Made by a program: the position numbers and the translations under genes | IMG/VR virus record: IMGVR_UViG_3300042691_033915 | Location: 1 to 64,000 of that record | Direction: 5' to 3' (one strand) | DNA: 64,000 nucleotides | Source of the DNA: a virus | In this document: positions 8,956 through 29,400 of the stretch, piece after piece | How positions within the stretch are numbered: the first letter of the stretch is position 1 | How the letters are laid out: each line of letters starts with the position of its first letter | The notes under the pieces: model-generated | Database searches by the model: none | The model's input: only the letters and a program-made list of their open reading frames with translations | What the model was told of the DNA's origin: nothing

Positions 8956-11103
8956 CTACTTCTTTCCCTTGCTTTGGCGAGATACCTTTGTTGACCACGT
9001 CTTCCCAGGGTCTCCGCCCCATAGTGCCCATGCGATGCGGCCATTGCTCGGGAATCCCTCTGACCCTGGAGCCCAGCCCTTGCCCTGCTTGTCAACTTCG
9101 TGGCGGGCAAAGTACGCGCTCATCTTTCGGATTCGGGCTAGTGTCAAACGGTTGCCAATAATCATCCGTGCGGTAGCCTGGCCTGGGCCAATGCCGCCAC
9201 GGCCAAACTCCTCGCGCCACTTCAAGCCCTTTCGGGCTTCTGCCTTAGCGCCGGCTGGGGCGACAGTGCTTGCGCCCTCCTTCTGGGTCTCAATCGGGTC
9301 GTTCTCAATGTTGACTGCCACAAACGAGGCGCCAATCTTCTTGTACTCTTCGGCAAGCTCGCTAGTCTTTTCAATAATCTCCAGTTCGCCGTTTCGCATT
9401 AGCTTACTTGCGGCGTAGAGTCGGAAGCGATTTTCGGTGCCCTCTGGCCACGTGTTGATAATCAAATCGTCATACGGGATCTTGTCTTCTTGAAGCCACT
9501 CGGCAATCTCTTCCTTGTCGTTCTTAAACCCGACAACAATGGCAATGCGTCGACCGGAATCCTTTGCCTCAGTGATTGCCTCGGCAACCTTTGGGCGAAC
9601 TTCCCAGTCCTCGTCGTAGAGAGCCTCAATGCCAATCATCAAGCCAAGGAGTGCCTTGCTGGTTTGCTGTTGTGGGCTCATGGTTTCGCCCTGATTTGGC
9701 TCTTCGCCTGGGTTGTCTGGCCCGCCCTGCGCCGGTGCTGCCCCGCCGCCGTCTGGCTCGTTAGGGTCAGTTGGTGGGGTTGGACCGTCCGGGCCTTCAG
9801 GCTTGGCAAGCGCAACGTCAAGATACTCTTCGTAGCGAGAGAGCGGGATATAGCCCTTGGGCGAAGGAACAAAGATGTCATCGCCCATGCCGCCAATGCC
9901 CTCATGACCACGCTCCTGCAAAGCCTCGTTCAGCTTCAGCCACGGCATGCCCGAAAGCGCAGCCTTGTAATAGCTAGACATAGTGCTTTGGCTTTCTCGG
10001 CCAACCTCTGTGTAGACAAAGCGAAGGTTCTTGTCGTAGCGCCAAATGATTTCTCGGGTCATGTATTCAGCAATCAGGTCAAGCAGCGGGGCAATGCCGT
10101 TGTCGGCGGTAAATGCTGCTCCAACCTCTGCGCTTGCACGGTTGACGTCCATAGTAATGCCGATGTCTTGTGGCTGCACGCCAAATACGGCGCAGATCTT
10201 GCGGGCGAGGTAGACCTGCCACTCCATGAACTGCATGTCGCGGTTCGACGAGGCAAGTGGAATCCATTGCACGCCCTTGCCGCCGCCGGTAATGGCAATC
10301 TGGCTGCGTCCGGAAATCTCCGTGTCCCAATACGCCTTAAATGAATCAACCTGGTCTGCGCGGATGCCTTCGCCAAGATGCAATACGCCCGGAGGCGCTG
10401 CCTGGGAAACTGCCTTTGCGTTGTAGGCGGCAGCCGTAAGGTCAGCCTCAATCGTGTCCGCAAGAACTTCTAGCGGAGAGAGTCCGATAGGCGAATAAGT
10501 AACAGGGTTTGCAATGATGACCAAAAGCTCATGGTTCTTAAACTTGCGAATCTGCCGACCAGTTTCGTCAACCTCAAAATATCGCGGGTCGGTGTCGTTT
10601 TCCCCGTCCCACTCATTATTGAAAGCAATGCTGCCCCCGTTCTTTGCAATGAGTTCGGCTACTGGCTTTGCTCCTTCAAGCCCAATAGCGCCACCACGCG
10701 TCGGAATGACTTCAATGCAGCCCTGATCAAGCACGAGAATGTCTTCGACAACTGGCTCAATAAGGGAGCGCCAGGAGTCCATGCGGCGGTTTGGGTAGCG
10801 CAAAAGCTCCTTGACCTGGTTAATCTTTCGAATTGTGCCGCGCTGCTCTCCGTCGTAGGTAACAATGTCCCACTTGGCGCGACTAACTTGCTGGCGGCGA
10901 AGGTTGATTGCAGCGCGAATCCATGGGTTGCTGCGGGACCACTTGCGGAGCTGGAGTACGCTTCTGCGAGTCATTTGAACGCTGCCTACGCCACGGGCGT
11001 ATGGCCCAATGTCATAGTCAGGAACAATGGCTGACCCACCGCTCTTTACGCTTGTGGTGTCTCGATTCAGTATCCGGTCAATTAGCGACCTATCGTCTGC
11101 CAT
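8956..11103 (-). CDS. HK97-type portal protein with C-terminal extra domains
   Basis: The 715-residue product starts at ATG 11103, next to the previous stop. Residues 1-430 resemble HK97-family portals: SNPWIRAAINLRRQQVSRAKW, the PIGLSPLEVLADTIEADL stretch, then KICAVFGVQPQDIGI and NRASAEV. A Pro/Gly-rich linker follows at about 440-490. Residues about 500-600 resemble a HAD/polynucleotide-kinase-phosphatase fold (AITEAKDSGRRIAIVVG, then EWLQEDKIPYDDLI), but the catalytic DxD is not evident. The last 90 residues contain a GRGGIGPGQATARMI and YFARHEVDKQGKGW module found in other phage structural proteins; I cannot name the family. The portal is transcribed away from the protease and capsid genes. 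Confidence 0.85.
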   Translation of the reverse strand: MADDRSLIDRILNRDTTSVKSGGSAIVPDYDIGPYARGVGSVQMTRRSVLQLRKWSRSNPWIRAAINLRRQQVSRAKWDIVTYDGEQRGTIRKINQVKELLRYPNRRMDSWRSLIEPVVEDILVLDQGCIEVIPTRGGAIGLEGAKPVAELIAKNGGSIAFNNEWDGENDTDPRYFEVDETGRQIRKFKNHELLVIIANPVTYSPIGLSPLEVLADTIEADLTAAAYNAKAVSQAAPPGVLHLGEGIRADQVDSFKAYWDTEISGRSQIAITGGGKGVQWIPLASSNRDMQFMEWQVYLARKICAVFGVQPQDIGITMDVNRASAEVGAAFTADNGIAPLLDLIAEYMTREIIWRYDKNLRFVYTEVGRESQSTMSSYYKAALSGMPWLKLNEALQERGHEGIGGMGDDIFVPSPKGYIPLSRYEEYLDVALAKPEGPDGPTPPTDPNEPDGGGAAPAQGGPDNPGEEPNQGETMSPQQQTSKALLGLMIGIEALYDEDWEVRPKVAEAITEAKDSGRRIAIVVGFKNDKEEIAEWLQEDKIPYDDLIINTWPEGTENRFRLYAASKLMRNGELEIIEKTSELAEEYKKIGASFVAVNIENDPIETQKEGASTVAPAGAKAEARKGLKWREEFGRGGIGPGQATARMIIGNRLTLARIRKMSAYFARHEVDKQGKGWAPGSEGFPSNGRIAWALWGGDPGKTWSTKVSRQSKGKK

Positions 11104-11328
11104 TTAGCCTCTCCCTCGAATTCCGCCTCGCAGTGCCCTGCGGAAGATTGAATCCGTCATTTGCTTGTTTACGTGGTCTTGCATTTCTGCTCTCGTGCAG
11201 GATACCACTCTTCTCCCGTTGCGATACGTTACCGTGTGCTGCGACATGTATTGGCTCCACCATACAGGAACTACGCAGGTAATATCAACAAACTCAACCT
11301 CTACGGTTGATTGAATGTCAGGATTCAT
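11104..11328 (-). CDS. Hypothetical protein upstream of portal
   Basis: The 74-residue product has ATG 11328 inside the end of the upstream gene (11-base overlap), and its TAA abuts the portal ATG. It has an N-terminal beta-like part (VEVEFVDITCVVPVWWSQYM) and an Arg-rich C-terminus (RRALRGGIRGRG). No family is recognised. Tight packing on both sides indicates cotranslation with the portal, so a head-related role is possible. Confidence 0.6.
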   Translation of the reverse strand: MNPDIQSTVEVEFVDITCVVPVWWSQYMSQHTVTYRNGRRVVSCTRAEMQDHVNKQMTDSIFRRALRGGIRGRG

Positions 11329-11752
11329 TATCTGTCAATGACTCCAACGCCCAAGCCCTGGCTTCGGCTTCGGCTTCTTCTAGGGTTGGCAAATTCGCCT
11401 CTTCTATCTCTTCTTCCTTTTGCAATATTTCGTCAAGTCTCTGGTGGTATTTTCTTGCCTGAGGAACGCTCATCCGAAGGGACTTTAAATGCTTGTGGCA
11501 ATTCGGGCAAACCGCGTAACGCTTTTGACCCTTGGCCCGTGGGACCATTGGTTCAAGGACTAGGTTTTGCTCCGTGTGGGATTCCCCGACCAGGATGGTG
11601 CACAGGGCGCACCGGAAGTGGGCCTTGCGCTGGTGATCGTAGCTTTCCAAGATTGGCTGGATGGTTCTTTGTAGGCGAAGGAGCGCCGACGCCAAGTCCT
11701 GGACCTCAGAACCCGACTCGCGTATCTGTTCGCAAAGTATGCATTTTTCCAT
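11318..11752 (-). CDS. Zinc-binding protein with three CxxC motifs
   Basis: The 144-residue product starts at ATG 11752. CILC (residues 4-7), CALC (about 48-51) and CPNC (about 83-86) can form one or two zinc sites. The last 50 residues are a Glu/Ala-rich helix, probably a coiled coil (EEIEEANLPTLEEAEAEARAW). HNH-like history is possible from the His-rich middle (HQRKAHFRC, GESHTEQNL), but no complete HNH set is visible. It is the first gene leftward of the divergent promoter region. Confidence 0.6.
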   Translation of the reverse strand: MEKCILCEQIRESGSEVQDLASALLRLQRTIQPILESYDHQRKAHFRCALCTILVGESHTEQNLVLEPMVPRAKGQKRYAVCPNCHKHLKSLRMSVPQARKYHQRLDEILQKEEEIEEANLPTLEEAEAEARAWALESLTDNES

Positions 11753-11756
11753 AGGG

Positions 11757-11769
11757 GGTATGTTATCAT
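11757..11769 (+). repeat. 13-bp element shared with the terminase promoter region
   Basis: GGTATGTTATCAT occurs here and, identically, at 57044-57056, just before the small terminase gene. Both lie in divergent intergenic regions. Confidence 0.5.
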
Positions 11770-11790
11770 GCTTTCAAGATGGTATGACAC

Positions 11791-11818
11791 TAGACACACA
11801 ACTGCGTGCAGATACTAT
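11791..11818 (+). promoter_or_regulatory. Structural operon promoter
   Basis: TAGACA (11791-11796), a 16-base spacer, then TACTAT (11813-11818). The same ATACTAT core is present in leftward promoters at 7517, 18464 and 63370. An alternative, TTGTGT (11839) with TATTAT (11863-11868) at 18 bases, lies closer to the gene. Together they give a leader of about 40-85 bases before ATG 11910. No gene lies in the 11753-11909 gap. Confidence 0.55.
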
Positions 11819-11909
11819 AGGTATAGATTTGTAGCGCGTTGTGTTACAGGATAAAGCATGTGTATTATCTATCCGCTGACCAAGTTGCGTCGGCCATATA
11901 GGGGGAATC

Positions 11910-13676
11910 ATGTCTGATTTCAAGATCTATACAAACGCGTTGAAGGCCTACGAGGCTGATAACGGCGACCGATTCGTAACTGGAACTACCTCCTCAACAA
12001 TTAGGGACCTTCATGGAGATGAGATGACCCTATCTGCCTTGAAGAGCATGGAAGCTACCGCCAAGCAGAATATGACTATTTGGCTAAATCACGAATACCA
12101 GGTTCCGGACGACCTTTTTGGCTCCGTCAAGGACGCGCGCATTGTGAAGCGCATTGACGCAACCGGCCAAGAGGTCTTTGACCTTGATGTCGATATATCT
12201 GTTGTTTCTGAGGACGAGAACCCAGAAGCAATTCGTGCTTACCGCGCAATCAAGCGCGGTGTCAAGCTCGGGCTTTCAATTGGTGCGAAGGTTGACAGAG
12301 TTAGCAAAAAGGTTGACAAGTCAACTGGAGAAGAGACATATGTCATTGACAGTGTCAAGTTGATGGAGGCATCGGTTGTTGGTATTCCGGCAAACCAGCG
12401 TTCATATCTACAGAATGCTGTAAAGAGCCTTCGTGGTGCTTCCCGGGCGGAAATGGACGAGCTCGTGGCTAAGGCTGTTGAGGTCGAGGGCCAGGCTGGA
12501 GCCGATAAGGCCCCGCTTATTGGCGCGCTGTACACGCTCCTTGCCGAGGCAACCAGTTTCTACCTAAAGGCGCATGGCGCCCATTGGAACGTTGTCGGCG
12601 AAGAGTTTGCCCAATATCATGAGCTCTTCCAGGAAATTTACGAAGACGTTCATGAATCACTTGATCCAATTGCAGAAAACCTTCGCAAGCTAAACTCGGC
12701 AGCTCCTTTTGAGCTGAAGGATTTGGCCCGAATGACCAACGACGCCCCACAGGCGGAGGGCTACGAAGCCGAAGCCCTTGCCTCTAATCTTTATGCTGCC
12801 AACGAATCACTGCTGGAAAACATCATGGTTGCCTTTAAGGCTGCCACTGATGCCAACCAGCAGGGGGTTGCTAATTTCCTGGCCGAGCGCCAGGACATGC
12901 ACCAGAAGTGGTCGTGGCAGCTCCGGGCTTCTCTTACTGAGGAGTCGGGCGAGGCTGAAAAGTCAGGCGAGGCAGAAGTACTGTCCTCAGCAATGAAGCA
13001 AAACAAAGGCCCACAGGGCAACCCATTGGAGGTAAAGAGCGTGGAAAACGAGACCATTAACCCTGAGGCTATTGAGCCTGCCGCCGAGGAGGTTGTCGCC
13101 GTTGAGGAGACTGCCGCCGAAGAGGAGCCAAAGCCACATCACATTGCCGTACTTGAAGAGTTCGGCGCAGAAGTTGTCAAGGATACCGACCTAGAGATTG
13201 CCGCTCGGCAGGCCCAGGCGGCCGCCGATGCAGCAGCTGCTGTAGAGCCAGAGGCACCAGCAGAAGAGAAGGTCGAAGAAGCCCCCGTTGTGGAGGCACC
13301 AGCCGTTGAGCCAGAGGCTCCGGCGGAAGCTCCAGCAACGGAAATTGAACATGCCGCAGAGCCTGAAGCTGCTGCGGATGATAAGTCGGCCGATACAGCA
13401 GCCCTTGCCGAGGTCGCCGAAATTGCCAAGTCTGCGCTAGATGCAGCACTTGCCGCACAGGCAGAAGTAACTGCTCTTAAGAAGAGCGTTGCCGAAGTCA
13501 TTGCTGCAAAGGCCAAGGTCGAGCTGGAGTTGGAAAAGACATTGGACCTGGTTGGCAGACTGATTGACGTCCCCGTCGGTCATGTTCCAGCCTTCAAGCG
13601 CGCCACGGGAGAGATGGCAACATCCGCCCCTTGGCTAAGCCCATACATCCAGCGTGTGCTGGAGACTCAGGAGTAA
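11910..13676 (+). CDS. HK97 prohead protease fused to a Dps/ferritin-like domain
   Basis: The product has 588 residues. Residues 1-170 are the U35-type prohead protease: TIWLNHEYQVP supplies His61, and GVKLGLSIGAKV supplies Ser123, followed by MEASVVGIPANQ. Residues about 200-345 resemble Dps: AHGAHWNVVGEEFAQYHELF, then DVHESLDPIAENL. Aligned to E. coli Dps, His225, His237, Asp252 and Glu256 match His51, His63, Asp78 and Glu82, while Gln241 replaces Asp67. Residues 380-500 are Ala/Glu/Pro-rich. Residues 500-588 contain a coiled coil and a conserved-looking end, probably the scaffold-like delta domain. It should cleave capsid and itself during head maturation. The Dps part suggests iron binding or DNA protection in the prohead; whether it survives maturation is unknown. 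Confidence 0.88.
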   Translation: MSDFKIYTNALKAYEADNGDRFVTGTTSSTIRDLHGDEMTLSALKSMEATAKQNMTIWLNHEYQVPDDLFGSVKDARIVKRIDATGQEVFDLDVDISVVSEDENPEAIRAYRAIKRGVKLGLSIGAKVDRVSKKVDKSTGEETYVIDSVKLMEASVVGIPANQRSYLQNAVKSLRGASRAEMDELVAKAVEVEGQAGADKAPLIGALYTLLAEATSFYLKAHGAHWNVVGEEFAQYHELFQEIYEDVHESLDPIAENLRKLNSAAPFELKDLARMTNDAPQAEGYEAEALASNLYAANESLLENIMVAFKAATDANQQGVANFLAERQDMHQKWSWQLRASLTEESGEAEKSGEAEVLSSAMKQNKGPQGNPLEVKSVENETINPEAIEPAAEEVVAVEETAAEEEPKPHHIAVLEEFGAEVVKDTDLEIAARQAQAAADAAAAVEPEAPAEEKVEEAPVVEAPAVEPEAPAEAPATEIEHAAEPEAAADDKSADTAALAEVAEIAKSALDAALAAQAEVTALKKSVAEVIAAKAKVELELEKTLDLVGRLIDVPVGHVPAFKRATGEMATSAPWLSPYIQRVLETQE

Positions 13677-13682
13677 TAAATC

Positions 13683-14909
13683 ATGAGCGACCACCGAGAG
13701 ATCCTAGGCGGATTCGAGAAGGGTCTTGAAACCCTTAACGAGTCCGTAGTGACCCGCGATTCGGGCACCGGGAAGACTTTCGACGCCGCCGAGGCCTACG
13801 CGATTCAGAAGGACCTTCGCAAGAAGTTCTCGAAGATGAACACGTCCGACCTTCACGAGATGCTTGACATTCAGGCAGCCCGCGAGACCGGCAAGCAGGC
13901 TTCGTCCGACGTCCTTAATCAGTTGGCAGTTGCTAATCCCAACATTGCCAAGCTTCTTGACAGCAGCGGCGGCGCGGCTCTTATCCGACAGGACTTGGAG
14001 CCAATCCTCTATTCGCTGTTTGTAAAGAAGTTCCCATTCTTCGAGCGCATTCGCAAGGAGCCGGCAAACGGCCTCGTGCACGCGTTCAACCAGCAGACCG
14101 CTTACGGTACCGCCGTCTTCCAGACGGAAAGCGGCACCGTGACCGATGATGCCGCGACCTACGTTCGCCAGACGACCAATGTGGCCGTTCTTGCGACACG
14201 ACGCGGTATCACGCTGAAGTCGCAGTTCGCCCTTAACCAGGGTGGCGGCCCATTCAACGGGCTTTCGACCGAGCTTGCCTCGGGCGTAACTGCTATTGCA
14301 GCGAAGCTCCAGACTTCTCTCTTCCAGGGCAACGCCACTGTCACCACGGGTGCAGGCGCAGCCACCGAGCTTGGCGCGTATGACGCGAACGGGTTTGATG
14401 GTCTTCGCAAGCAGCTTGGTAACGCAGCTGGTACGTCCCAGCGAGTCAACAAGTCATCCGCTACGTATCTTTCAACGATCAATTCGAACGTTGCATCGAT
14501 TCTTAACGCGGGTGGAAACCCAACGGCAATCCTTGCTTCGCCAACGGATTACGCTGGTCTTGTTAACGAAGTAACCAACCTTGTTCGATACAATGCCCCA
14601 TCGCAGGGCCAGCAGGTTATGGGCCTCACCCTTGGCACCGTTGTTACGGCTGCCGGTGAGCTTCCAATCCTGTCGGTTCCTGGCGACAGCATTGGTTCGT
14701 ACTCGATCAGCACAGACTCGTACCGCGACATGTATGTCGTAGACGAGGATTCCTGGTCGATGCCGTACCTCGGCTCGGACTCGATCACGACGCTGGAGAT
14801 TCCAGTCGGCGTGAACGGTGCCCTTTCGCGCCTTTACATTATGTATGTAATGTTTGGTCTTGCGAACAAGGCACCTCAGTTCAACGGCAAGATCCGCGTC
14901 ACCGCGTAA
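13683..14909 (+). CDS. Major capsid protein, HK97 fold
   Basis: The 408-residue product starts at ATG 13683, after AGGAG, 6 bases behind the protease gene. The N-terminal 100 residues are helical and charged, typical of a delta domain removed by the prohead protease. The mature part begins near LDSSGGAALIRQDLEPILYSLFVKKFPFFERI. It contains the E-loop-like segment (HAFNQQTAYGTAVFQTESG) and the A-domain stretch AILASPTDYAGL to YRDMYVVDEDSWSMPYLG. Placement after the protease is canonical. Codon use is GC-rich and regular, as expected for a highly expressed gene. Confidence 0.9.
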   Translation: MSDHREILGGFEKGLETLNESVVTRDSGTGKTFDAAEAYAIQKDLRKKFSKMNTSDLHEMLDIQAARETGKQASSDVLNQLAVANPNIAKLLDSSGGAALIRQDLEPILYSLFVKKFPFFERIRKEPANGLVHAFNQQTAYGTAVFQTESGTVTDDAATYVRQTTNVAVLATRRGITLKSQFALNQGGGPFNGLSTELASGVTAIAAKLQTSLFQGNATVTTGAGAATELGAYDANGFDGLRKQLGNAAGTSQRVNKSSATYLSTINSNVASILNAGGNPTAILASPTDYAGLVNEVTNLVRYNAPSQGQQVMGLTLGTVVTAAGELPILSVPGDSIGSYSISTDSYRDMYVVDEDSWSMPYLGSDSITTLEIPVGVNGALSRLYIMYVMFGLANKAPQFNGKIRVTA

Positions 14910-16532: not shown

Positions 16533-17147
16533 ATGAGCAAGGCCGTCAGGGTGCGCGTCAAAGGTGTGATTGGCGGACTTAGCGCGCTTGCAAAAAACTT
16601 AGGGGGAATACCCAAAGAGGCAGAGGCGCAATTTGCTCGGGCGGTCCAGGTTGCTGCGTTCCAGGCGGTGTATTCAGAAGTTGCCCCAAAGGCCGCGCAG
16701 GCCGCCCCGGTTGACTCTGGCGCATTTCAGGCCGGTCTCTCTGGTCAGTGGGGGGCATTTACCTCCAGCAAGCGCAAGGCTGCCAGATACTCAAACCCGG
16801 TTTTTGATCTAACGCCATACGGTGACGACATCACTGTCGAGTACGGAAGCGACCCATTTGAGGAATCAAAAGATGGTGGAGAGCATTACTACGGGCAGTA
16901 TGTAAAGTTTAACGTTCAGAAGTACCGACCCATGATCAATCAAGCTGTAACCGGCGCGGTCAAAAGCGCTGCAGAAGAATTTCTGGTGCAACTTTTCGAG
17001 AGAGCGTTAGACAGGGCCTTTTTCCCAACGAAAACTGGGCGCGGATACGGAGCAGCAAAGCTTGCAACGCTGCCCCGTTCCCGTCAGTTAAAGATCTTCC
17101 GCCAGAGAAAGTACATGTTTATGAAGAGGCAACGTGGTGCCGCCTAG
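16533..17147 (+). CDS. HK97 gp10-like tail completion protein
   Basis: The 204-residue product starts immediately after the previous stop. The N-terminal half (LSALAKNLGGIPKEAEAQFARAVQVAA to APVDSGAFQAGLSGQWG) matches HK97-gp10-like/minor tail proteins, with the typical PVDSGAF turn. The middle, about residues 95-125, contains VEYGSDPFEESKDGGEHYYGQYVKF, a frequent C-terminal motif. The last 30 residues are very basic. Its last 4 bases overlap the convergent metallophosphoesterase gene. Confidence 0.75.
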   Translation: MSKAVRVRVKGVIGGLSALAKNLGGIPKEAEAQFARAVQVAAFQAVYSEVAPKAAQAAPVDSGAFQAGLSGQWGAFTSSKRKAARYSNPVFDLTPYGDDITVEYGSDPFEESKDGGEHYYGQYVKFNVQKYRPMINQAVTGAVKSAAEEFLVQLFERALDRAFFPTKTGRGYGAAKLATLPRSRQLKIFRQRKYMFMKRQRGAA

Positions 17148-18427
17148 GTAAGGCGAATCAGGTACTCCGCAGATACGCCGTCTGGGTGCTGGAACAACAG
17201 CCACTGGCATGGCTCGCCAGCAGAAGCAAGCTGCTCCTGGGCGTAGGTGTTGCTGCTCTCTGTTGAGCCACCGTTCCAATGCACGATGCCGTTGAGGTAC
17301 ATCCGCACTGGCGTGTGGAAGTGACCAGCAACGCTGTAATCAAACGGGGCAACGGTCATATTCCAGCCCTGAATCTTCTTTCCAAATCCGTACCAAGGGA
17401 AGCCAGCAAAGCCGCCGCCAACCTGGTCGCCATGGAATAGGAACCAACGCTTGCCGTACACCTCGTCGGTGCCAAACCAAGCCCGCTCGCCCTTGGAGAT
17501 GGTCTCTACCCAATCAACGTGCTTGATGTCCTTAACCAACATAGAAGCAACCTTGTACATCATTGCGTCGGCATTGGACTCTGGGTGGAACGTGCCCTTT
17601 CGGCCAAGTCGCCCATGGTTGCCAATTGCGCCAACAACACGGATGTTCTCAAAGGTTGCCGCCAATCGGCGAACAAGCCCAGCAAGGATTTCCGCGCCAC
17701 GGAAGGTCTGGTTGTAGAGAGATGCGTCAATCAAGTGCGCCTGCCCAGGGAAGATGTCTTCTCCCTCAACTAGGTCGCCAAGCAGATACACCCGCAAATC
17801 CGTTACTGGGTGGTCTGCTCGCTGAATCGCCACAAGTGACTCTACCTTTGCCGCAAGCAGCTCAATTCGCTCTGCGCAAATGTCGCTGTTGTAGGTTGGG
17901 GTAATCTTGCCAAGCTGCCAGTCAGACAAAAGCAAGATGGCGGTTTCAGGTGCGCTCTTGCGCTTATCCTTGGCCGGAGCCTTAACGGTAGGAAGCGTAA
18001 TGGCAGCAGCAGCGTCGCTTGCGGCCTGGTAAACAGCGCGAACCAGCTCTGCTCGGTCGTCGTCCTTTTGGGACAACTTGCGAAGGGCCGCGCGATGAGC
18101 CTGCTTCAACTGTTCAATCTCGCTTCGCACCGCTTCTGATGACAGCTCATCTTCTACAACCTTGGCAACAGCGTTGCGGTCAATTCGACCCTCGCTTGCA
18201 ACCTTGGCGGCAAGCGTTCCAGGGAACACGTTGCGCACTGAGCCGTTGTGAACCCGCCTGTCAATAAACGAAGCCTTCCCGTTTAGAAGGGTGTTGCGCT
18301 TAATGCGATAGGCGTTGGGTGTTCGGGTTGGATACTTTGCATGGAAATCTTCCCACTCCATGCTCACGGCATCCGCCTTCTCTTGGGGGGTCCATGAGAG
18401 CACTAATCGGTCATGACCTTTTTCCAC
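17144..18427 (-). CDS. Calcineurin-like metallophosphoesterase on the opposite strand
   Basis: GTG 18427 is fixed by GGAGG 4 bases upstream; the longer frame crosses the tail terminator gene. The 427-residue product has an N-terminal helix-turn-helix-like segment (FHAKYPTRTPNAYRIKRNTLL) and a coiled region, then the phosphoesterase core. Its motifs are SDWQLGK (Asp169), GDLVEG (Asp218), GNHG (Asn270, His271), HGD (332-334) and GHFH (369-371). The first motif has Gln where many family members have DxH. It could act on DNA ends, nucleotides or protein phosphates. It interrupts the structural operon and has its own leader, so it looks like a later insertion (moron). Confidence 0.87.
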   Translation of the reverse strand: MEKGHDRLVLSWTPQEKADAVSMEWEDFHAKYPTRTPNAYRIKRNTLLNGKASFIDRRVHNGSVRNVFPGTLAAKVASEGRIDRNAVAKVVEDELSSEAVRSEIEQLKQAHRAALRKLSQKDDDRAELVRAVYQAASDAAAAITLPTVKAPAKDKRKSAPETAILLLSDWQLGKITPTYNSDICAERIELLAAKVESLVAIQRADHPVTDLRVYLLGDLVEGEDIFPGQAHLIDASLYNQTFRGAEILAGLVRRLAATFENIRVVGAIGNHGRLGRKGTFHPESNADAMMYKVASMLVKDIKHVDWVETISKGERAWFGTDEVYGKRWFLFHGDQVGGGFAGFPWYGFGKKIQGWNMTVAPFDYSVAGHFHTPVRMYLNGIVHWNGGSTESSNTYAQEQLASAGEPCQWLLFQHPDGVSAEYLIRLT

Positions 18428-18442
18428 AAAACCTCCAATACT
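18428..18442 (-). promoter_or_regulatory. Conserved ribosome-binding leader, copy 2
   Basis: AAAACCTCCAATACT on the plus strand is identical to 7478-7492. It supplies the GGAGG for the GTG start of the phosphoesterase gene. Confidence 0.7.
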
Positions 18443-18463
18443 TCCGGCATAGTTGCCGCGCCC

Positions 18464-18505
18464 ATAGTATACCCGCCACGCAACCTGCACGCATTTTTTT
18501 GCGTG
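18464..18505 (-). promoter_or_regulatory. Candidate leftward -10 box and hairpin
   Basis: On the minus strand a TACTAT/TATACT core lies at 18471-18464, matching the -10 boxes at 7517 and 63370, but no good -35 is visible. Further upstream 18488-18505 reads CACGCA-T6-TGCGTG, a hairpin with a homopolymer loop. No small gene is seen between 18428 and 18554. Confidence 0.4.
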
Positions 18506-18554
18506 TAGATGTCTGTGGGCTGGAATCTTACTGAATAGTTGGTAATCTACACAC

Positions 18555-18953
18555 GTGGACGGTATATATGAAGCTTTCTTTACGGCGCTGAGCGGGGACT
18601 CGTCCCTGCAAACCTTGCTGGGCGGCTCGGCGACAGACAAGAAGGTATATCCGATCACAAACACGGGACGGAGCACGCTTCCTGCGGTGAGAATCGCAGT
18701 AGTAGCGGGTAGTAGCGACTTAGGGCTGCCTATTGACAGACCTGTTGTTGACGTGCTTATTGCAAGCAACGCCAGCGCGACAGAGCTGAATAATATTGGT
18801 AGTGCTATAGATGCGGTACTTAACCGTGAGCGTCTGTCTGGACCAAACGGGGCAGTCTTGCACGTAGCGCGTAAAATCGCACAACGTGACGGATATGACC
18901 CAAACACTTTAGAATATCGGCGAGTAATCCGATATCAAGTCATAAAAACTTAA
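18555..18953 (+). CDS. Tail terminator protein (DUF3168/gpU-like)
   Basis: The 132-residue product starts at GTG 18555, with a weak ribosome site. The sequence matches tail terminators: IYEAFFTALSGDSSLQTLLGG, KKVYPITNTGRSTLPAVRIAVV, then PVVDVLIASNASATELNNIGSAIDAVLNRE and a C-terminal strand EYRRVIRYQVI. It caps the growing tail tube and joins it to the head. It lies just before the tube gene, the normal order. The phosphoesterase insertion separates it from the other connector genes. Confidence 0.78.
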   Translation: MDGIYEAFFTALSGDSSLQTLLGGSATDKKVYPITNTGRSTLPAVRIAVVAGSSDLGLPIDRPVVDVLIASNASATELNNIGSAIDAVLNRERLSGPNGAVLHVARKIAQRDGYDPNTLEYRRVIRYQVIKT

Positions 18954-20489: not shown

Positions 20490-23400
20490 GTGGCAGATAC
20501 GGCAGACCAGTCTAGCACTGGACAGATATCCATTGGTCTTGATACCAGTCAATTTAAGGCTGGAACACAGGCCATCCTTGCGGATATTCGACTGCTTACC
20601 CAGGGTCTTAATCAGTTTGAGGCAGCGGGAAGTAAAGTCGGATCGTCTTTCCGGGGGTTGCGACAAGCCTCTCTTTCACTTAGGCAATTCAGAAGTGCGG
20701 TCGACGCGGACGCAATTCCTGCACTGCGAAAACTGCAGCTTCAGGCAAACGCCTCTGCTGCAAGCCTAAGCAGGGTATTCAACGTTGGGGCTCAGCCCAA
20801 TAACGCTGTTTCTGGTATTCAGCGCGTTACCAATGCCTTGGCGGCACAAGAGCGCCAGGCAATGCGAACCGCAGACGCGATGGCGCGTGCAGCGATGTCG
20901 CAAAACCGCACGGGCGCAATGGCATTTAGAAATGCTGGGCGCTCAGGGAGCGGTTCCTTTGGTCGAGGTGGGGCAGGTACGGGAGCCGCAGGAACGCGCG
21001 GCGCCCGCTCCTCACTAGACGATTCCGGGGCGGCTGCCCGCTCTATACCCAGCATAGCGGGCATATCAAGGGCCGCGCTTGGCCTGGAGCTCTCTAAGCG
21101 CTCCGGCATGCGCAAGGCAGGAATTGCCGTTAGGGGCCGGACAGGGGATACGGGACCATCCTTTGACACAGACCAAGGATTTATAGCAAGAGAGTCCAGG
21201 TCGCAGCTTGGTTCCCGTCTTCATGCGCGAGAGCTTGGTCAATATATTTCAAGGTTGCTTGCCTCAGAAACTGGCGACGTCTCGTATCCAGTTGAATCAT
21301 TAGATCTAAGAAACTATGCATTCCGTGGGAGTCGATTTGGACCGCCAAAGCCAAGGCGAAGATCAGGACGCTACGGCACTCAGCAAGCAGACCTAGATCT
21401 CTTTGAAAAGGGATTAGAAGCAGGAGACTTAAACCTTATTGAGCAAGCCTTTGGCGGGCCGCGATCTCGCCTAAGAGAAGACGTCCGGCGTTTGCCTGCG
21501 TATCTGCAAAATTTAATTAAGATGGCTAGAAACGCCAGGAGATCCAGCAGCACTTTCTTCCCGCGCTCTAATCCTGGCAGGCCAATGTCGGTCCACATCC
21601 CCGGTCGAGGCCTAACAGAGCTCTCTAAGAAATCGGGCAGGGGCGGCAGCGGTGGCAACAAGGATATTGACCGCGTAGTTAGCCAGCTATTCCCGCAAGG
21701 ATGGAAATTTGAAAAGCGTAAGGGCGGCCACAACGCCGTCATTGCTCCATCTGGCCAAAAAGTATTCTACCCATCATCAGCCTCAGACCGCCGCGCAGTA
21801 CAAAACTTTATTTCCGAGCTGCGCAAGAAGGGTGCCGTTATCGATGGTCGTGGCTACGGCGGCAAAGAGGGCAAGGGCGGGCCGAGCGAAATGTCACGAC
21901 GCTCTGGCGGGCGACCCGTTGCTGAGACAGCCTTTGGTTTTGTGCCAGACCGCCGACTTCTGGAAGCAATGCGCAGGGGCGACATGTCGTTTGGCCAGGA
22001 GATTGGCGCTCAACGCCTAAACACAAGGAGAGTATCCGCCACTGTTTCTATGGGCGGAAGATCGGGCCCCGGAAGATATAGCGGCACGGCTATTGCCATG
22101 TTCCCAGAGAACGACAGGGGCCTTCGTGGTCAATCGGGGCGAGAGGTTGGAAGAAACCTTGGGCAAGGAGACAGAAAGACTAGGCGCACTAAACTTTCTC
22201 CATATAGCCCGATGGCAGAAAAAGTATACGAGGTTCTTGGCGCAATGCTTGGGGCCCCTACGCCTGCGGTCGTTAGAAGAAGGCTAACTCCACTAGAGCA
22301 GCAACTGGCCACTGGCGGGACACTGCCGCAAGTTGGTTCTTCAGCCAGGGCAAACATTGGAAAAACCCGCAGAGTTGCTTCTGGAAGATTTGAAAACCCA
22401 CAAGTGCGTCAACGCCGACCAATGGGCCGCAATGCATGGATGATCCCGTGGCTTGACGATTTCCAACCAATGAAGAGCGTACTTCGCGGGCACCCGACAT
22501 TTGACAACGAGATTAGAACGCAGGCGACCAGACAACTTGGATCAACACGAGACATGCGACGCATCATGCTCCTTGATCAGATCCTTGGTCAGACAGATCG
22601 ACACGGCTCAAACATGATGGTCGGCAAGGGGCGCGGCGGAAAGCGAAGAATTCTTGGAATTGATAACGAGCATATGTTTAGCATGGGCGGCCTCAATAGG
22701 CCTATCTCAGATCTTGATAGGCAGCTAAACAATACGCCGCAATTCTCGTCATTCTCTGCTCGCTATACGCCGAGAGATGTTCCGCAGGGTGGTGGCACAT
22801 TGCTGCCGTGGATGACAAAAGGGAGCGGCTCCAGCCTTTCAAGAATTAAATTAACAAAGCAGGAGCAAGATGCATCTGCGCGCGAAGCAAAAACCCTAAG
22901 GGGAATCCTTGGCGGCAAGAGGTCAATGAAGATTGTTGAAGAATCCTTCTTGACTGCTGGCTACTCCAAGAGGGACACCGATAGGTACATGGCGGCCCTT
23001 CGAACAAGGCTAGAGGCTGCGGCAATTACAAGAGAGTCAGAGGCATCTTCCGGGAGCAGCGATGCCGGCGATTATTCGAAAATGTTGGAGATGTCGCGCC
23101 GATCTGGTGCACAAAGAAGGCTTGCATCAAGAGCCAGAGCAACTGGTCGCGGGGTCATGCTTCCTCATGATCTTCCTGGTGGCGATTTTGCGGAACTCCC
23201 AAGACCGCTTCGGCTGCTTGGCGAAATGCTGCACAGAAAAGAAGTAAACAGGGTAGCTCGGCCGGTAGAGTTTGAAGATTCAACTAGGTCGTCTTTGGTT
23301 ACGGGAGAAACGTTTACTCCTGGCCGAGCAAGCAGGGGCTCCCGCCCTGTAATTCCTCAAAACCTTGCTGGCCGAAGCCCAGAGCAAATTTTTGCAGAAG

Positions 23401-26400
23401 CGCTTGTTGCTTCGCACAACGCTGGTATGCGGGTTCGAGAGATTGGCGCAGACCCTGAACGTTTGATTAATGCTCAGCTGCAAGCTATGGGTGTTTCCGT
23501 TGCGCAAGATGGAAACGTTAGGAGAATTATTTCTCGATCAGATCAAATGACTGCAGCGCGCGCGTATCAATTGTTTAGGAGACAGCAAAAAGGAATGGGC
23601 TCAATTGCCGCATTGTCGCCTGGCTCAGTTAACGTGAGCTCATGGTTGGGCCAACAAGGCGGCGACGAGGGCTCGCGCAAAGACCTTCTTGGCGGAGCCC
23701 TTGATGCAATGAGCGGTTTTGATGCGTTTAGAGAGGTGAGCGCGGGCACCGCCGGGGCACGCAGAGATAGAAGGGCTGGTCAGAGCGGTAACCGCAGAAT
23801 TGGCCTTACGGGCGGATTTATTGCTACCGCGCCTAATAGATTTTACGTTCCAGGGATGCCCGACGCTGCGGGCTTAAGGAATCTTGTTGTTGGCGCAATG
23901 ACCCACAGAATGCCTGGCACACACGAGCAGGGCAAGCTTGCCGGCCTAAAGGGCATTGGGGTGCCAGGTGTCGGCACTAGCCTTATGGCTTACGAGTTGC
24001 GTCGGCACGCGCGGGCGATCATGGAAGCTCGCAGGCGGTACCCCGGTGCCCTGGAGGCTAAGTACGGTGTAACCCCAGAAGATCTTTCAGCACTAGGCAG
24101 GCCGCAAGGTTCTCCTCGCGGCCTTAGCTTAAAGGCGAGCGGTTCTGGAATGGGCCTGTACGAAGCGCTTGGCTTTAGCTTTAGCGATCCCGTTGACGAA
24201 GACGGGAAACTACCGAGCCGATTTATGCACATGGGCGGGCACGCAGTTGTTGACACGTACGAAAAAATCCGCGCAGAGATTAAGCGCGTAGAGGCGGGCC
24301 TTGCCGCTCAGGGCATTGCTTACAGCCCAATGGAGTTTGCGCGAAGGTCGGGTAAGGCTTGGACCGACCCAAATCTTGAAGACCGAAGAACGAGTATTTC
24401 AAGCAGGCTAGTTCCAATGATTTCAGACCCAGAGCAGCTTCGCGTTTCAGAAGAAGACTTGCTTGGGCCGTTTACCAGGGGGACGCGTTTTAAGCTACAG
24501 AGCGAAACATACACTTCTGGCCCATCGGCAGGCAAGCCAATTGCCCGACCAAAATCCCATCGTGGAGTTAAATACTACACCGCCACAACTCCAGGCGGCA
24601 TAAAGATCGTCAACATCCCCGAGGACATTGACAAGGGAAGATTGCAGCAACTAATTGCCTCTACGGAAACAATGCGCAGAAAATACCCAGACAAGTATTT
24701 TCAGGTAAACCTGCAATACGGCAAGAGCGACAGGGGGGCTCTGGGCACAGCTGATCTTGGCGGGTCATTAATGGAGCTACGCGACTCGCTGTTTTCGGAA
24801 TTTGCAGAACAAACAACGGGGTGGCGAAATGATTTTGAAACATTTGCACCAAAAAACCCCAATCAGGTGCGAGAGCATTATGGGCCTTGGGAAGAGGGAA
24901 AGCGCAGAAAGTTCAGAATGGTCCCTCGTGGCGCCCCAGATGGACGCCACGAAACTCTTGACAACGCACAAACTTTGGTTGCTCACGAATTTGGCCATTT
25001 GTTTTCCCCAGATCAGTGGGGTAGACGGCTTTGGAAAGAGGCAGGATTCCAAGGAACAATGGCTGGCGCCTCGATGCCATACCTTGACTTTAGAAGAAGA
25101 GGTAAGGGCGTCTCAGGGGAATATGGCGACATGGCCACAATTTCCCAATGGCACGACCAGGGACGGAGCCCGGGCGGCGCAATAAAAGATTTCCTTTTGC
25201 CTTACGAAAGAATAAACTCTAGAGGAAGCTACCGGGGTGCTCCGGGGTATTTTGGCGGGGAATACTCTCCAGGGAGTAAAGCGAATAAGGAAATGCTTGG
25301 ATCCCAACATCCGTTGAGAGAAGAAATTTTTCCGGCCATGATGCGGAAGATTGGCGAACTTATGGTCATTGGTGAGTATGGCCCGCTTTCTGCAGTTCTT
25401 CCTAGGTATCAAAAGAAGACAACATCTAAGGGTCGAACACGCATGCCTGGAGACACAAAATTCCAAACCATTGAAGAGGCCATGGACGAACTTTGGAGGA
25501 TTGGCGGATACCGCAACGCGGAAACCACATCCCCTGCTTCGGAGTGGTACGCCTCTATGTTTGAGAGGTACAGCACCAGATCATTTGGTCAACCCGGAGC
25601 TATCCCAAAGCACAACATGCTTGGCTATCGCGTTGCAAGGATAATAGCTAAAAACTCTGGCTGGGCTGAGTACAGCAAGCGCTCAGGTGGTATCGGCGGG
25701 ATGCTTGGCGGTCTCTTTGGTAAGGGCAGACCGAACATCATGCAGCAGATCACGGGCGGACAAACCTATGGGATGACGCTAGAAGACCTGCTGGGCGGAG
25801 AAATTATGCCCGGCATGGGAAAAGCGCCTGAAGGGTTCACGGGCGCAACTGGAAAACAAATCTTTAACCTGAAGACCATGGCTGGAGAAATTAGACAGGT
25901 TCTTGCGCAGCCAATAGGCGGCGAGTACTCCCAGGGTGGTCGATTCCCAAACAAGGCAATGGAGATCCTTGCTGGGCTTCTTGGGGTGGAGACCCCAACA
26001 ATTCTGGAGCGCAGCATTGGCGGCAGGAGATTGGCCATTCAGCCGATAGCCCCAGCGGACACCGCAAGCAGATTTGTCCAGAAGCGCAACGCGCCCCCAT
26101 CCAAGAGGGTTGATGTATGGGAAGACGACGAAATTATTGGCTTCTTCTCTCAGCCCTTAGGCCCGAGCTCAGATGATCCAGACCTTCGCAAGCAGCCGTG
26201 GCTTGCAAGCAGGGGCGGAAGGCGCATGCAGATCCTTGATCACATTGCGCAAACATTCGACCGTCATAATTCAAACTATCTTCTCAATTTAATTGACCCC
26301 CAGGCTGGCCTTGGTCAGCCTGGAAATTATCGCGTTACCGCAATTGACCACGATCTGACCCTTAGCCCACCGGGCACTGGGGTATTAGGTCGGAGTCCAT

Positions 26401-29400
26401 ATCGGCCAGCCAGCAATGTGCCAATTGGCATCCCCGGACAGTTCCGGGACACTCAAACAAAACTCGCAAGGGAAGAAGCCGCTACCCTTGCGGGCGTTAT
26501 GACGCGGCGAAAAGTTATAGAGCCGCAATTGCTTGAAGCATTGCGAGCAGGGGGATATAGTGAGCAGGAAGCACTCGCAACAGTCGATGCTATCTTCAGA
26601 CGCGCACGTGAAGCGTTTAGGAGTCGCATGGCTGAATCGCGGGGCGCAGCCCGGCCGGACGGTCGGGAACTATCACGAAGATCAGGGGGTGGCGGTATGA
26701 ACGGCCTGACGAACCCCTTTGCCGAATACAGCAAGCGCAGCGGCGGCGCAGCCACAAAAGATCCATATACATCCTTGCAGACCGCCTTTGAGCAGGTCAC
26801 CCTTACCGCCATCAAGAACCTGAAGGTATCCCTTGCTGGGCAGAAAGTAAGTCCTCAACTCCTTAGAAGCAGCTTTGCATCTTTCCAGCAAACAATTCTT
26901 GACGCAGCTACGGGCCAGGGAGAATTTGCTGGCGGCTCGATGCAGAAGGCGCTGCGCGGCATTGCACCAAAGGCACGCAAGTCCTTGATGGGCATGTTCA
27001 GCGGCATCCTGCAGGATATGGTGGACACGGGCACCGCCGCATTCAAGCGTGGCGACTTGAAGGGCATCCCTCTTCGCAAAGTGCTGTTCGGCATGCTTGG
27101 CTCAGTGCCGTCAACCTATGCGCCAGACATTGCGCAGATTGCCGCAAACCCAGCGCTTCAAGGAAAGAAGCCGAGCGGGAGCAGGGACAGAATCCCAGGA
27201 ATTGCCGGAATAAATAAATACGCCACTGGGCTACAGCAGCTTGGCGGAGTTCCAATAGCTGCAGGGTTGCGCCTTGCTGGCTCCGCCACGCTTGATCAGC
27301 ACCTATTGGATCAAGGGTTTAACCCAGAAAACTATCGAGGCAGGGCCGGAATTGTTACCGACCTAATGCAAAAATATATGCCGAGCAGCCCAGGACTTCC
27401 TTCGGGCCTTAGATTCACAGACACACTCACCCCAGACAGCGAGGGTCGAAGTTCTTGGGGTAACTACATGCCAAGTAGGGGTGCGGGCATGGTTGGGCCA
27501 GGAACGGCATACCCAGATGATCGCGTTGGGCAAATTTCTCTTGATCTTGGTAGCCAGGGGGGCATGCGGCGAAACGGCCTGGACAGAAGCACAGTAACCA
27601 TTGGCAAGCTACTGGCAACGACGGCACATGAAATTACGCACAAAATGGTTGATGAGGCACAACTAGAAGCCGCAAAACTTTCTATTGGAAAAACTGACGC
27701 AGAGAAAGAAGAAATTCTCAAAAAGGTTACGGCCGCCAGGGGCGTACCGCAGAAAGATAAGTATAGGGCATACTCTGGTATTTCCGGGGAATACATGTTT
27801 GTGCCAAAAGGCAGTGCCCCAATTGGCGCACGTCCAATACCGCTGGGTAGCGGACAAAACCCAGAGGCTTACAGCTACATGGAGCTGCCAAAGGGTTCAA
27901 TTACAGAGTCGGAATACAAGGCTTTAAGCCCCAAGGCCAAGGCATCTTACGAAAAGGGCTACGTAACTGCAGATCAAGCAAGGGCAATTGACTCCAATGC
28001 AGGTGGACAACACATTAACGTCCCTGGACACTTTGGGCCACAGGCAGCAATGCTTGATGATTTTGGTGCCGGAGTTACGGAGTACGCACAGCTTCTTGCA
28101 GCATCTACAAGGATTTTGCAACCAGGAGAAACACAAGCAAGCCTGCTCAGGTCTACGGCACAAATGAATGCTGGGTCCCGAGCAAACATAACTAGCTTCT
28201 CTGCGGCAACCCCAGGGGTTGCGGGAGTTTTGAACCCATTCCAGGGCGGCTTGCTTAAGGCATTTGATCTTTCCAAGGCGACTGGCGTGGGCTCATCCAT
28301 GAAGCCAGTTGCTGAATTCCTTGCAAGGCTTCAAAGGAATATGTCCAGTCAGATGACCGACGCAACGGCCGCTGGTGGGCTTGACCCTAAGGATCTTGGC
28401 TCCATGTTTACAAAGGCGCTTGCAAAAGCAATAGAGGCAACGCCAAAGGGCGAGCGATCCAGCGCTCTTTCGGCAATACGCCCAGACAGAATGCTTGACG
28501 CAGCTGTCATTCTTGACAGCATCGGTAGAGCAAAAAATATTCCGGCGTTGACGCGGATGATTGATGCGGGCGGGGCAGTTCCCGCAGTTTCAAGCCCGCA
28601 TGGCATTATGGGTTCAGACACGGAAACCGACGCAGACGTACAAAAAATTAACCGAGAGCTTGCCCGGGGCGGAGGGTCTCGCAAAAGAAAGCCAGCGCCC
28701 GGACCGGCCCCAACCCCAGGCGCAGGACCTGGACTTGGATCTTTGCCACCAGACAGAATTGCAGTCATTGCCCCTAAGGGCGCTGATTTGCTCAGCAAAC
28801 TCACAGAGATTTTGTCAATGGGTGTTTCTGGCGGCGGGAAGGAAAATATTCCTCTCCGCAAGGTTATTCGCAAGGAAGCCGGACTGCCCGACCGACCACT
28901 CAGGGGAACGCAGCTTGCCACGGATAGCCTGACGAGTTCGGGCATTGCTGCGCTTGCGGAGCAGTTCCCAGAGCTTCTGCCGTTTGTACGAGAGTACAGA
29001 CCAAACCATCCGCTTCTTGGGCCTCAGCCAGGAACCAGGCTTCCTGCCACGAAGCGCGGGCGACGCGGAAGCGTAATTCAGTCACGTATTTCGACCTCAA
29101 CGGCGGTGCAGCCATACGCTGACACCATGGACCCAGACTATTACCAGAATCAGGCCGATGCAATCTTTGGCTCCCGAGTCAACGATGCCTTTAACATGCT
29201 TGGCGGCCAGAACGGTCTTGGCTATTCGCCACGGGGATTTGGCAACCATATGAACGTCCTATTGGACGTAATGCCAGAAGATCAACTTCAGGGAGGCATA
29301 GACAAGCTTAAGCAGTTTGGCGCAACCATGAAGGACGCCTTCCTAAACTCCAAGCCCGTAGTTGGTTTGATGCAGGACTTTGATGATGCAGTGCTTAGGG

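What the first reader, a model, noticed from the sequence alone, without database searches (positions are those of the whole stretch)
11910..13676. Prohead protease fused to a Dps/ferritin-like domain
Residues 200-345 keep four of five Dps ferroxidase-site positions (His225, His237, Asp252, Glu256; Gln241 replaces Asp). Dps binds DNA and oxidises iron. Inside a prohead, such a domain could be proteolysed with the scaffold or remain and protect DNA. I know of no characterised phage protease with this fusion.
Basis: partly seen in the sequence, partly recalled or inferred. Interest (0 to 1): 0.75.

Follow-up and report, generated by a model that had tools for sequence, protein, structure and literature searches.

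The report
Iron-protection domain inside phage head protease
A water-borne bacterial virus has an iron-oxidising, DNA-protecting bacterial protein (Dps) built into the enzyme that matures its DNA container, and dozens of uncultivated relatives have the same join in several layouts, which suggests these viruses load a protective enzyme into their own shells.

Summary
ORF 11910-13676 (588 aa) is a prohead protease (aa 1-175), a Dps domain (200-345) and an acidic scaffold-like tail, immediately before the major capsid gene. The Dps part matches Pfam Ferritin (E 3.7e-12). It is predicted as a Dps fold (pLDDT 94; best PDB matches are Dps, TM about 0.9). His225, His237, Asp252 and Glu256 are invariant in 98 of 98 distinct relatives; position 241 varies freely.

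It is not unique. At least 68 distinct fused domain sequences were found, with Dps either after or before the protease, in portal-protease-capsid modules. No fusion turned up in my tblastn searches of 50,697 annotated phage records.

(1) Six close relatives carry a Tudor-type cassette at exactly the same borders (window 12433/12956), so Dps is an exchangeable accessory. (2) All 21 family members tested have a Shine-Dalgarno plus start codon just after the cassette (window GTG 13041), predicting a separate scaffold-only product, as in lambda C/Nu3.

Best reading: Dps is low-copy enzymatic cargo carried into the prohead by the protease-scaffold. Iron chemistry is likely. DNA binding is unsupported (domain charge -13, no Lys-rich tail). 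Persistence in virions is untested.

The parts
11910..13676 (+). Whole ORF, 588 aa: prohead protease - Dps domain - acidic coiled-coil scaffold
   Evidence: strong SD (AGGGGGA) before ATG
11910..12434 (+). Protease domain (aa 1-175), S78-like; His61 (12090-12092), Ser123 (12276-12278) and Glu153 (12366-12368) are the likely catalytic residues
   Evidence: Pfam S78 E 3.7e-7; H61, S123, E153 invariant in 19 family members; weak profile alignment with type II S78 proteases lines up the same motifs
12434..12955 (+). Exchangeable cassette (522 nt, in frame) holding the Dps domain; replaced by a 291-nt Hva1_TUDOR cassette in six relatives
   Evidence: blastn of window against L015-L020: homology stops at 12433 and resumes at 12956 in all six; Tudor by Pfam in L017, same sequence type in the others
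12507..12944 (+). Dps domain (aa 200-345)
12582..12677 (+). Ferroxidase-site residues H225 (12582), H237 (12618), Q241 (12630), D252 (12663), E256 (12675)
   Evidence: 98 of 98 keep H, H, D, E; 241 is variable
12442..12471 (+). Stretch at which relatives L003 and L004 carry a Tudor domain in addition to Dps
   Evidence: Pfam on L003
13028..13043 (+). Predicted internal translation start: GGAGGT then GTG (aa 378)
   Evidence: conserved in position in 21 of 21 family members with different sequences around it
13041..13676 (+). Predicted scaffold-only product, 211 aa: acidic Ala/Glu-rich part, long helix and conserved C-terminal tail APWLSPYIQRVLETQE
   Evidence: net charge -33
13683..14909 (+). 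Major capsid protein (SU10-type, HK97 fold family)
   Evidence: Pfam SU10_MCP E 2e-10, PHROG 752
8956..11103 (-). Portal protein, divergent from the protease gene; its C-terminal ~90 aa belong to the same kind of domain as the N-terminus of type II Dps-protease fusions
   Evidence: Pfam Phage_portal E 8.6e-38; sequence comparison by eye

Best explanation
The Dps domain is accessory enzymatic cargo. The gene makes a long, probably scarce protein (protease-Dps-scaffold) and, from an internal start at 13041, a scaffold-only protein. Both share the same C-terminal scaffold and tail, so the long form co-assembles inside the prohead and brings the protease and the Dps domain with it. The Dps domain pairs with itself, as it must to form the inter-subunit iron site, and oxidises Fe(II) with peroxide or oxygen. 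This removes Fenton chemistry next to the DNA during packaging and, if the domain survives cutting by its own protease, in the virion or in the next host. Shown: the domains, the predicted fold, the conserved four ligands, purifying selection, the cassette exchange, and the position of the start signal. Inferred: prohead entry, low copy number, ferroxidase activity, survival in the particle.
For: Domains and fold. Four metal ligands invariant in 68 of 68 fused and 30 of 30 stand-alone domains while the fifth position drifts. dN/dS about 0.06-0.23 in the Dps part. The gene lies directly before the capsid gene. Fusions of other layouts also lie between portal and capsid genes, and a stand-alone relative follows the portal gene directly in L092. 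Nested start in 21 of 21. Swap for a Tudor cassette in close relatives shows that Dps is not needed to build the head. Precedents: protease and scaffold in one gene in lambda and P2 (PMC8508860); lambda C and Nu3 in one initiator complex (PMC3224144); T4 internal proteins carried in the head and delivered (PMC9024508).
Against: No virion or prohead protein data exist for any member. The scaffold part of the model is of low confidence. The protease could destroy the Dps domain. Position 241 is Gln here and Gly or Leu in many fusions, so activity may be altered. The internal start has only sequence support; in clades with ATG about half of synonymous shuffles also give a hit. The invariant ligands lie in a domain in which 29 of 152 columns are invariant anyway.
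Confidence: 0.5

Rival explanations
1. Delivered protector: the Dps piece is cut free in the prohead, stays in the capsid and is injected with the DNA, where it shields the entering genome from oxidants or nucleases, as T4 internal proteins or the P1 Dar system do against restriction.
For: T4 internal proteins are packaged, delivered and counter restriction; P1 Dar proteins sit in the head (PMC9024508). The cassette is exchangeable and accessory, as counter-defence genes often are.
Against: No cleavage site or packaging signal identified; no Lys-rich DNA-binding tail; net charge -13. A folded Dps dodecamer would be too wide for a tail tube, so it would have to pass unfolded (general knowledge).
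Confidence: 0.2
2. Cell-side enzyme: the domain acts in the infected cytoplasm before assembly, protecting the host cell from oxidative stress during infection; the join to the protease is a by-product of operon fusion.
For: Stand-alone phage Dps proteins have been explained so (PMC8008677; PMC6669764). In type II fusions SD+ATG pairs sit at the domain borders, as would be left by fused genes.
Against: The joins are to proteases, in more than one order and in portal-protease-capsid modules; a stand-alone copy also follows the portal gene. Late head genes are expressed after most replication (general knowledge).
Confidence: 0.15
3. Structural module: the Dps fold is used only as a self-association device (dimer or dodecamer) that gathers the protease and scaffold into a core.
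For: Dps subunits form dimers and dodecamers (general knowledge); the scaffold is a predicted long helix.
Against: Near relatives replace Dps by a Tudor domain and keep the rest of the structural genes; pure structure would not demand invariant iron ligands.
Confidence: 0.1
4. DNA-binding module: the domain condenses or tethers DNA in the head.
For: Family name; PHROG 3636 is called 'DNA binding protein'.
Against: Acidic domain and flanks, no Lys-rich tail. Some Dps proteins protect without binding DNA; A. tumefaciens Dps (1o9r), whose PDB title says so, is among the fold matches.
Confidence: 0.05

Closest known systems
Dps (DNA-binding protein from starved cells), e.g. P. aeruginosa PA0962 (8ff9), V. 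cholerae Dps (3iq1), L. innocua Dps (1qgh)
   Same: Fold (TM about 0.9 to PA0962 and V. cholerae Dps), short helix between helices B and C, His-His-Asp-Glu ligands; PA0962 and V. cholerae Dps also have Glu, not Asp, at the fifth position
   Different: Joined to a protease and scaffold; acidic; no Lys-rich tail; conserved D-M-H-Q-K-W-S-W helix end typical of this phage subfamily
Stand-alone phage Dps (PHROG 3636; 'Gratiaviridae', Campylobacter CP220, Aeromonas LAh, Proteus, Cronobacter and Synechococcus S-SRM01 phages)
   Same: Same domain family (PMC8008677)
   Different: Separate genes, explained as host oxidative-stress enzymes; here the domain is part of the prohead protease
Lambda C/Nu3 (and P2) protease-scaffold genes
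   Same: Protease and scaffold in one ORF, predicted nested scaffold start, next to the capsid gene
   Different: Different protease (S78-like); extra cargo domain between protease and scaffold
HK97 gp4-type S78 prohead protease
   Same: S78 His/Ser motifs; strong Pfam match in type II fusions
   Different: No known member found with Dps; type II carries it at the N-terminal side
Encapsulins with ferritin-like cargo (known from the literature, not tested here)
   Same: A ferritin-fold enzyme associated with an HK97-fold shell
   Different: Here the carrier is a phage prohead protease-scaffold, and the shell is a virion

Membership tests
Dps family | Four-helix bundle with a short helix between B and C | tested here: met
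   helices 4-33, 39-66, 75-81, 93-120, 124-148; pLDDT 93.6; PDB top matches are Dps
Dps family | Ferroxidase ligands His, His, Asp, Glu | tested here: met
   98 of 98
Dps family | Fifth position Asp (L. innocua Asp47) | tested here: not met
   Gln here, variable in family; also Glu in P. aeruginosa and V. cholerae Dps, so not strictly defining
Dps family | Dodecamer; Fe(II) oxidation with peroxide | not testable with these tools
   needs protein
Dps family | DNA binding by Lys-rich tails (only some Dps) | tested here: not met
   net charge -13, acidic flanks
S78 prohead protease | S78 domain with His and Ser | tested here: met
   Pfam E 3.7e-7; H61 and S123 invariant in 19
S78 prohead protease | Gene next to the major capsid gene | tested here: met
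   capsid gene starts 7 nt after the ORF ends
Lambda C/Nu3-like nested protease-scaffold | Internal in-frame start giving scaffold alone | tested here: inconclusive
   SD+start at the same place in 21 of 21; product not shown
T4-type internal head proteins | Present in mature virion and injected | not testable with these tools
   no virion data

The most novel reading that the evidence does not exclude
Tailed phages run a 'cargo bay' in their prohead protease: an exchangeable site (Dps, Tudor and other small domains) through which enzymes are loaded into the capsid. In this case a working Dps remains in the mature virion and protects the packaged genome from iron and peroxide damage, a viral counterpart of encapsulin-ferritin compartments.
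Probability: 0.25. Interest if true: 0.85.

Novelty: new variant of a known kind. Interest (0 to 1): 0.66.

Why it matters
Phage Dps proteins have been explained as helpers of the infected host cell. Finding the same domain repeatedly built into the capsid-maturation protease, and exchanged as a cassette at a fixed site, points to the inside of the particle instead. It makes a question testable: do virions carry oxidant-protection enzymes? It also offers a natural way to load proteins into phage heads, and a parallel to ferritin-loaded encapsulins, which share the HK97 shell fold.

Tried and rejected
Chance or artefact: rejected (profile E-values, many independent contigs, low dN/dS). Host gene rather than phage gene: rejected (window is a virus record; only 4 hits in the scan of bacterial and archaeal genome contigs, all in MAG contigs). 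'Unique fusion': rejected. Many independent fusions from the Dps tree alone: not established; fused types I, II and III are compatible with one clade of Dps domains (p-AU 0.68), although the order differs (before or after the protease), so at least two joining or rearranging events are needed. Full-length structure: low confidence outside the protease, not used. The Bacteroides phage BS162P1 hit is a stand-alone ~150-aa gene. MT836104 and the cultured-phage hits were not checked one by one for context beyond coverage of the query. Ten paper searches gave no report of this fusion in the open-access library; that does not exclude other papers. The functions of the Tudor and DUF domains were not resolved.

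Full report
OBSERVATION. The ORF at 11910-13676 codes for 588 aa. Pfam finds Peptidase_S78 (aa 48-170, E 3.7e-7) and Ferritin (aa 206-343, E 3.7e-12); PHROGs finds family 3636, 'DNA binding protein', over aa 201-342 (E 1.6e-23) and several head maturation proteases over the first part.

FOLD. AlphaFold2 with 32 aligned phage domains gives mean pLDDT 93.6 and four long helices with a short helix between B and C. Foldseek against the PDB gives P. aeruginosa PA0962, T. elongatus, V. cholerae, N. punctiforme, B. anthracis and other Dps proteins, TM about 0.9. A profile search against PDB sequences agrees (PA0962, E 2.2e-28).

LIGANDS. Over 98 distinct domain sequences, His225, His237, Asp252 and Glu256 are invariant in all, 68 of them fused; position 241 is E, G, Q, L, A, N, D, S or K. 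In alignment A1, 29 of 152 positions are invariant; by my arithmetic four named positions would all be among them by chance about once in 900. dN/dS of the Dps part is 0.06-0.23 where dS can be estimated. The site is kept by selection; whether for iron chemistry is inferred.

CHARGE. The Dps domain is acidic (net -13, pI 4.7), the linkers and scaffold likewise (scaffold net -33); there is no Lys-rich tail. This does not support DNA binding. Dps proteins that protect without binding DNA exist; the PDB title of A. tumefaciens Dps (1o9r) says so.

SURROUNDINGS. The next gene (13683-14909) is the SU10-type capsid protein; the portal is on the other strand (8956-11103). No separate scaffold ORF lies between protease and capsid genes. 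[quoted passage not shown] Lambda and P2 also code protease and scaffold in one gene (PMC8508860), and lambda C and Nu3 work together in the prohead initiator (PMC3224144).

NESTED START. In all 21 family members tested, an in-frame ATG or GTG preceded by GGAG at 5-10 nt lies just after the cassette and before the scaffold part. In the window it is ttGGAGGTaaagagcGTG at 13028-13043. The surrounding amino acids differ between clades (LEVKSVEN, QEKSMDIE, EEKKSVED, SVENSMDS, EGDTIVDT) and the GGAG falls in different codon phases. Synonymous-codon shuffles give a hit at the site in about 0.4-12% of cases for most clades, and about 40-58% in clades with a fixed Met and Glu codons. Together this favours a conserved internal start, so the Dps domain would be only on the long form.

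CASSETTE EXCHANGE. Six relatives (L015-L020) are homologous to the window on both sides (73-95% upstream; 70-91% downstream; 87-89% over 13 kb in L017), but homology stops at 12433 and resumes at 12956 in every one. Instead of 522 nt with Dps they have about 291 nt coding for a Tudor-type domain (Pfam Hva1_TUDOR in L017, the same sequence type in the others). Others have both domains (L003, L022, L025, L027, L030), and a further ~110-aa insert occurs in L007, L021 and L025. Dps is therefore an exchangeable accessory, not a needed part of the head.

DISTRIBUTION. A scan of genome contigs of 84,980 bacterial and archaeal species gave only four, all in MAG contigs. Architectures found: type I protease-[Tudor]-Dps-[Tudor]-scaffold (window); type II [RHEVDK domain]-Dps-[Tudor]-S78 protease; type III S78-Dps (L078; L042 is similar but its protease part has no Pfam match); protease-DUF6321-Dps-scaffold (L049); Dps in a 1766-aa protein (L032), in L076 and in a DUF5824 protein (L093). 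In L108 and L125 (type II), L078, L042 and L050 the fusion lies between portal and major head genes. A stand-alone copy follows the portal gene directly in L092, and one lies beside head morphogenesis genes in L046. The sample is biased towards the window's relatives, so 68 of 98 is not a frequency.

KNOWN PHAGES. tblastn against 50,697 annotated phage records finds stand-alone Dps genes (Campylobacter, Aeromonas, Proteus, Cronobacter, Synechococcus, Streptomyces phages) and S78 proteases without Dps, but no record in which one place covers 80% of a fusion. The literature found treats phage Dps as a host-stress enzyme (PMC8008677, PMC6669764).

ORIGIN. In the Dps tree type I forms one group (support 85) and most of type II with III another (98), but one joint clade of these fused domains is not rejected (p-AU 0.68). 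Order relative to the protease differs, so at least two joining or rearranging events are needed.

HOW IT MOST LIKELY WORKS. The long product enters the prohead through the scaffold tail it shares with the short product, carrying protease and Dps. Dps chains dimerise or form cages and oxidise iron, limiting radical damage to the genome. Whether the protease then frees or destroys the Dps piece is open. The T4 precedent (internal proteins packaged and delivered; PMC9024508) makes survival and delivery possible. I give 0.5 to the cargo reading with iron chemistry, 0.2 to delivery into the next host, 0.15 to a role in the infected cell, 0.1 to pure structure and 0.05 to DNA binding.

VERDICT. The finding is real and broader than stated: a new domain architecture, recurrent in uncultivated phages, with an exchangeable cassette site and a probable nested scaffold gene. 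Function remains to be shown at the bench.

Noticed in passing
window 20490-36977 (+): A single 5495-aa ORF: its second half matches a tape-measure family (TMP_3, E 5.8e-11) and aa 686-731 (about 22545-22682) match the PI3/PI4-kinase catalytic loop (E 2.6e-8; DRHGSNMM...IDNE). A kinase-like core in a giant tape-measure ORF is odd.
   Followed up: partly
window 8956-9250 (-), and N-termini of L080, L082, L045: The C-terminal ~90 aa of the portal (RHEVDKQGKGWAPG...GDPG) are the same kind of small domain as the N-terminus of type II Dps-protease fusions; small domains seem to travel among head proteins.
   Followed up: partly
L080-L136, e.g. L082 aa 123 and 413: Most type II fusions have SD+ATG pairs at domain borders, one just before Dps (often AGGAGG, spacing 5) and one just before the protease, so nested products may be general.
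   Followed up: partly
L036 1964-2266, L041 6436-6726, L135 5377-5700: A gene that looks like DUF6321 by eye lies next to a stand-alone Dps gene; the two domains are fused in the protease of L049, hinting at a shared task.
   Followed up: no
window 8956-13676: Portal and protease/capsid genes are on opposite strands and divergent, unusual for a head module.
   Followed up: no
window 17144-18907 (-): An exonuclease-family (phrog_284) gene on the minus strand inside the structural module.
   Followed up: no
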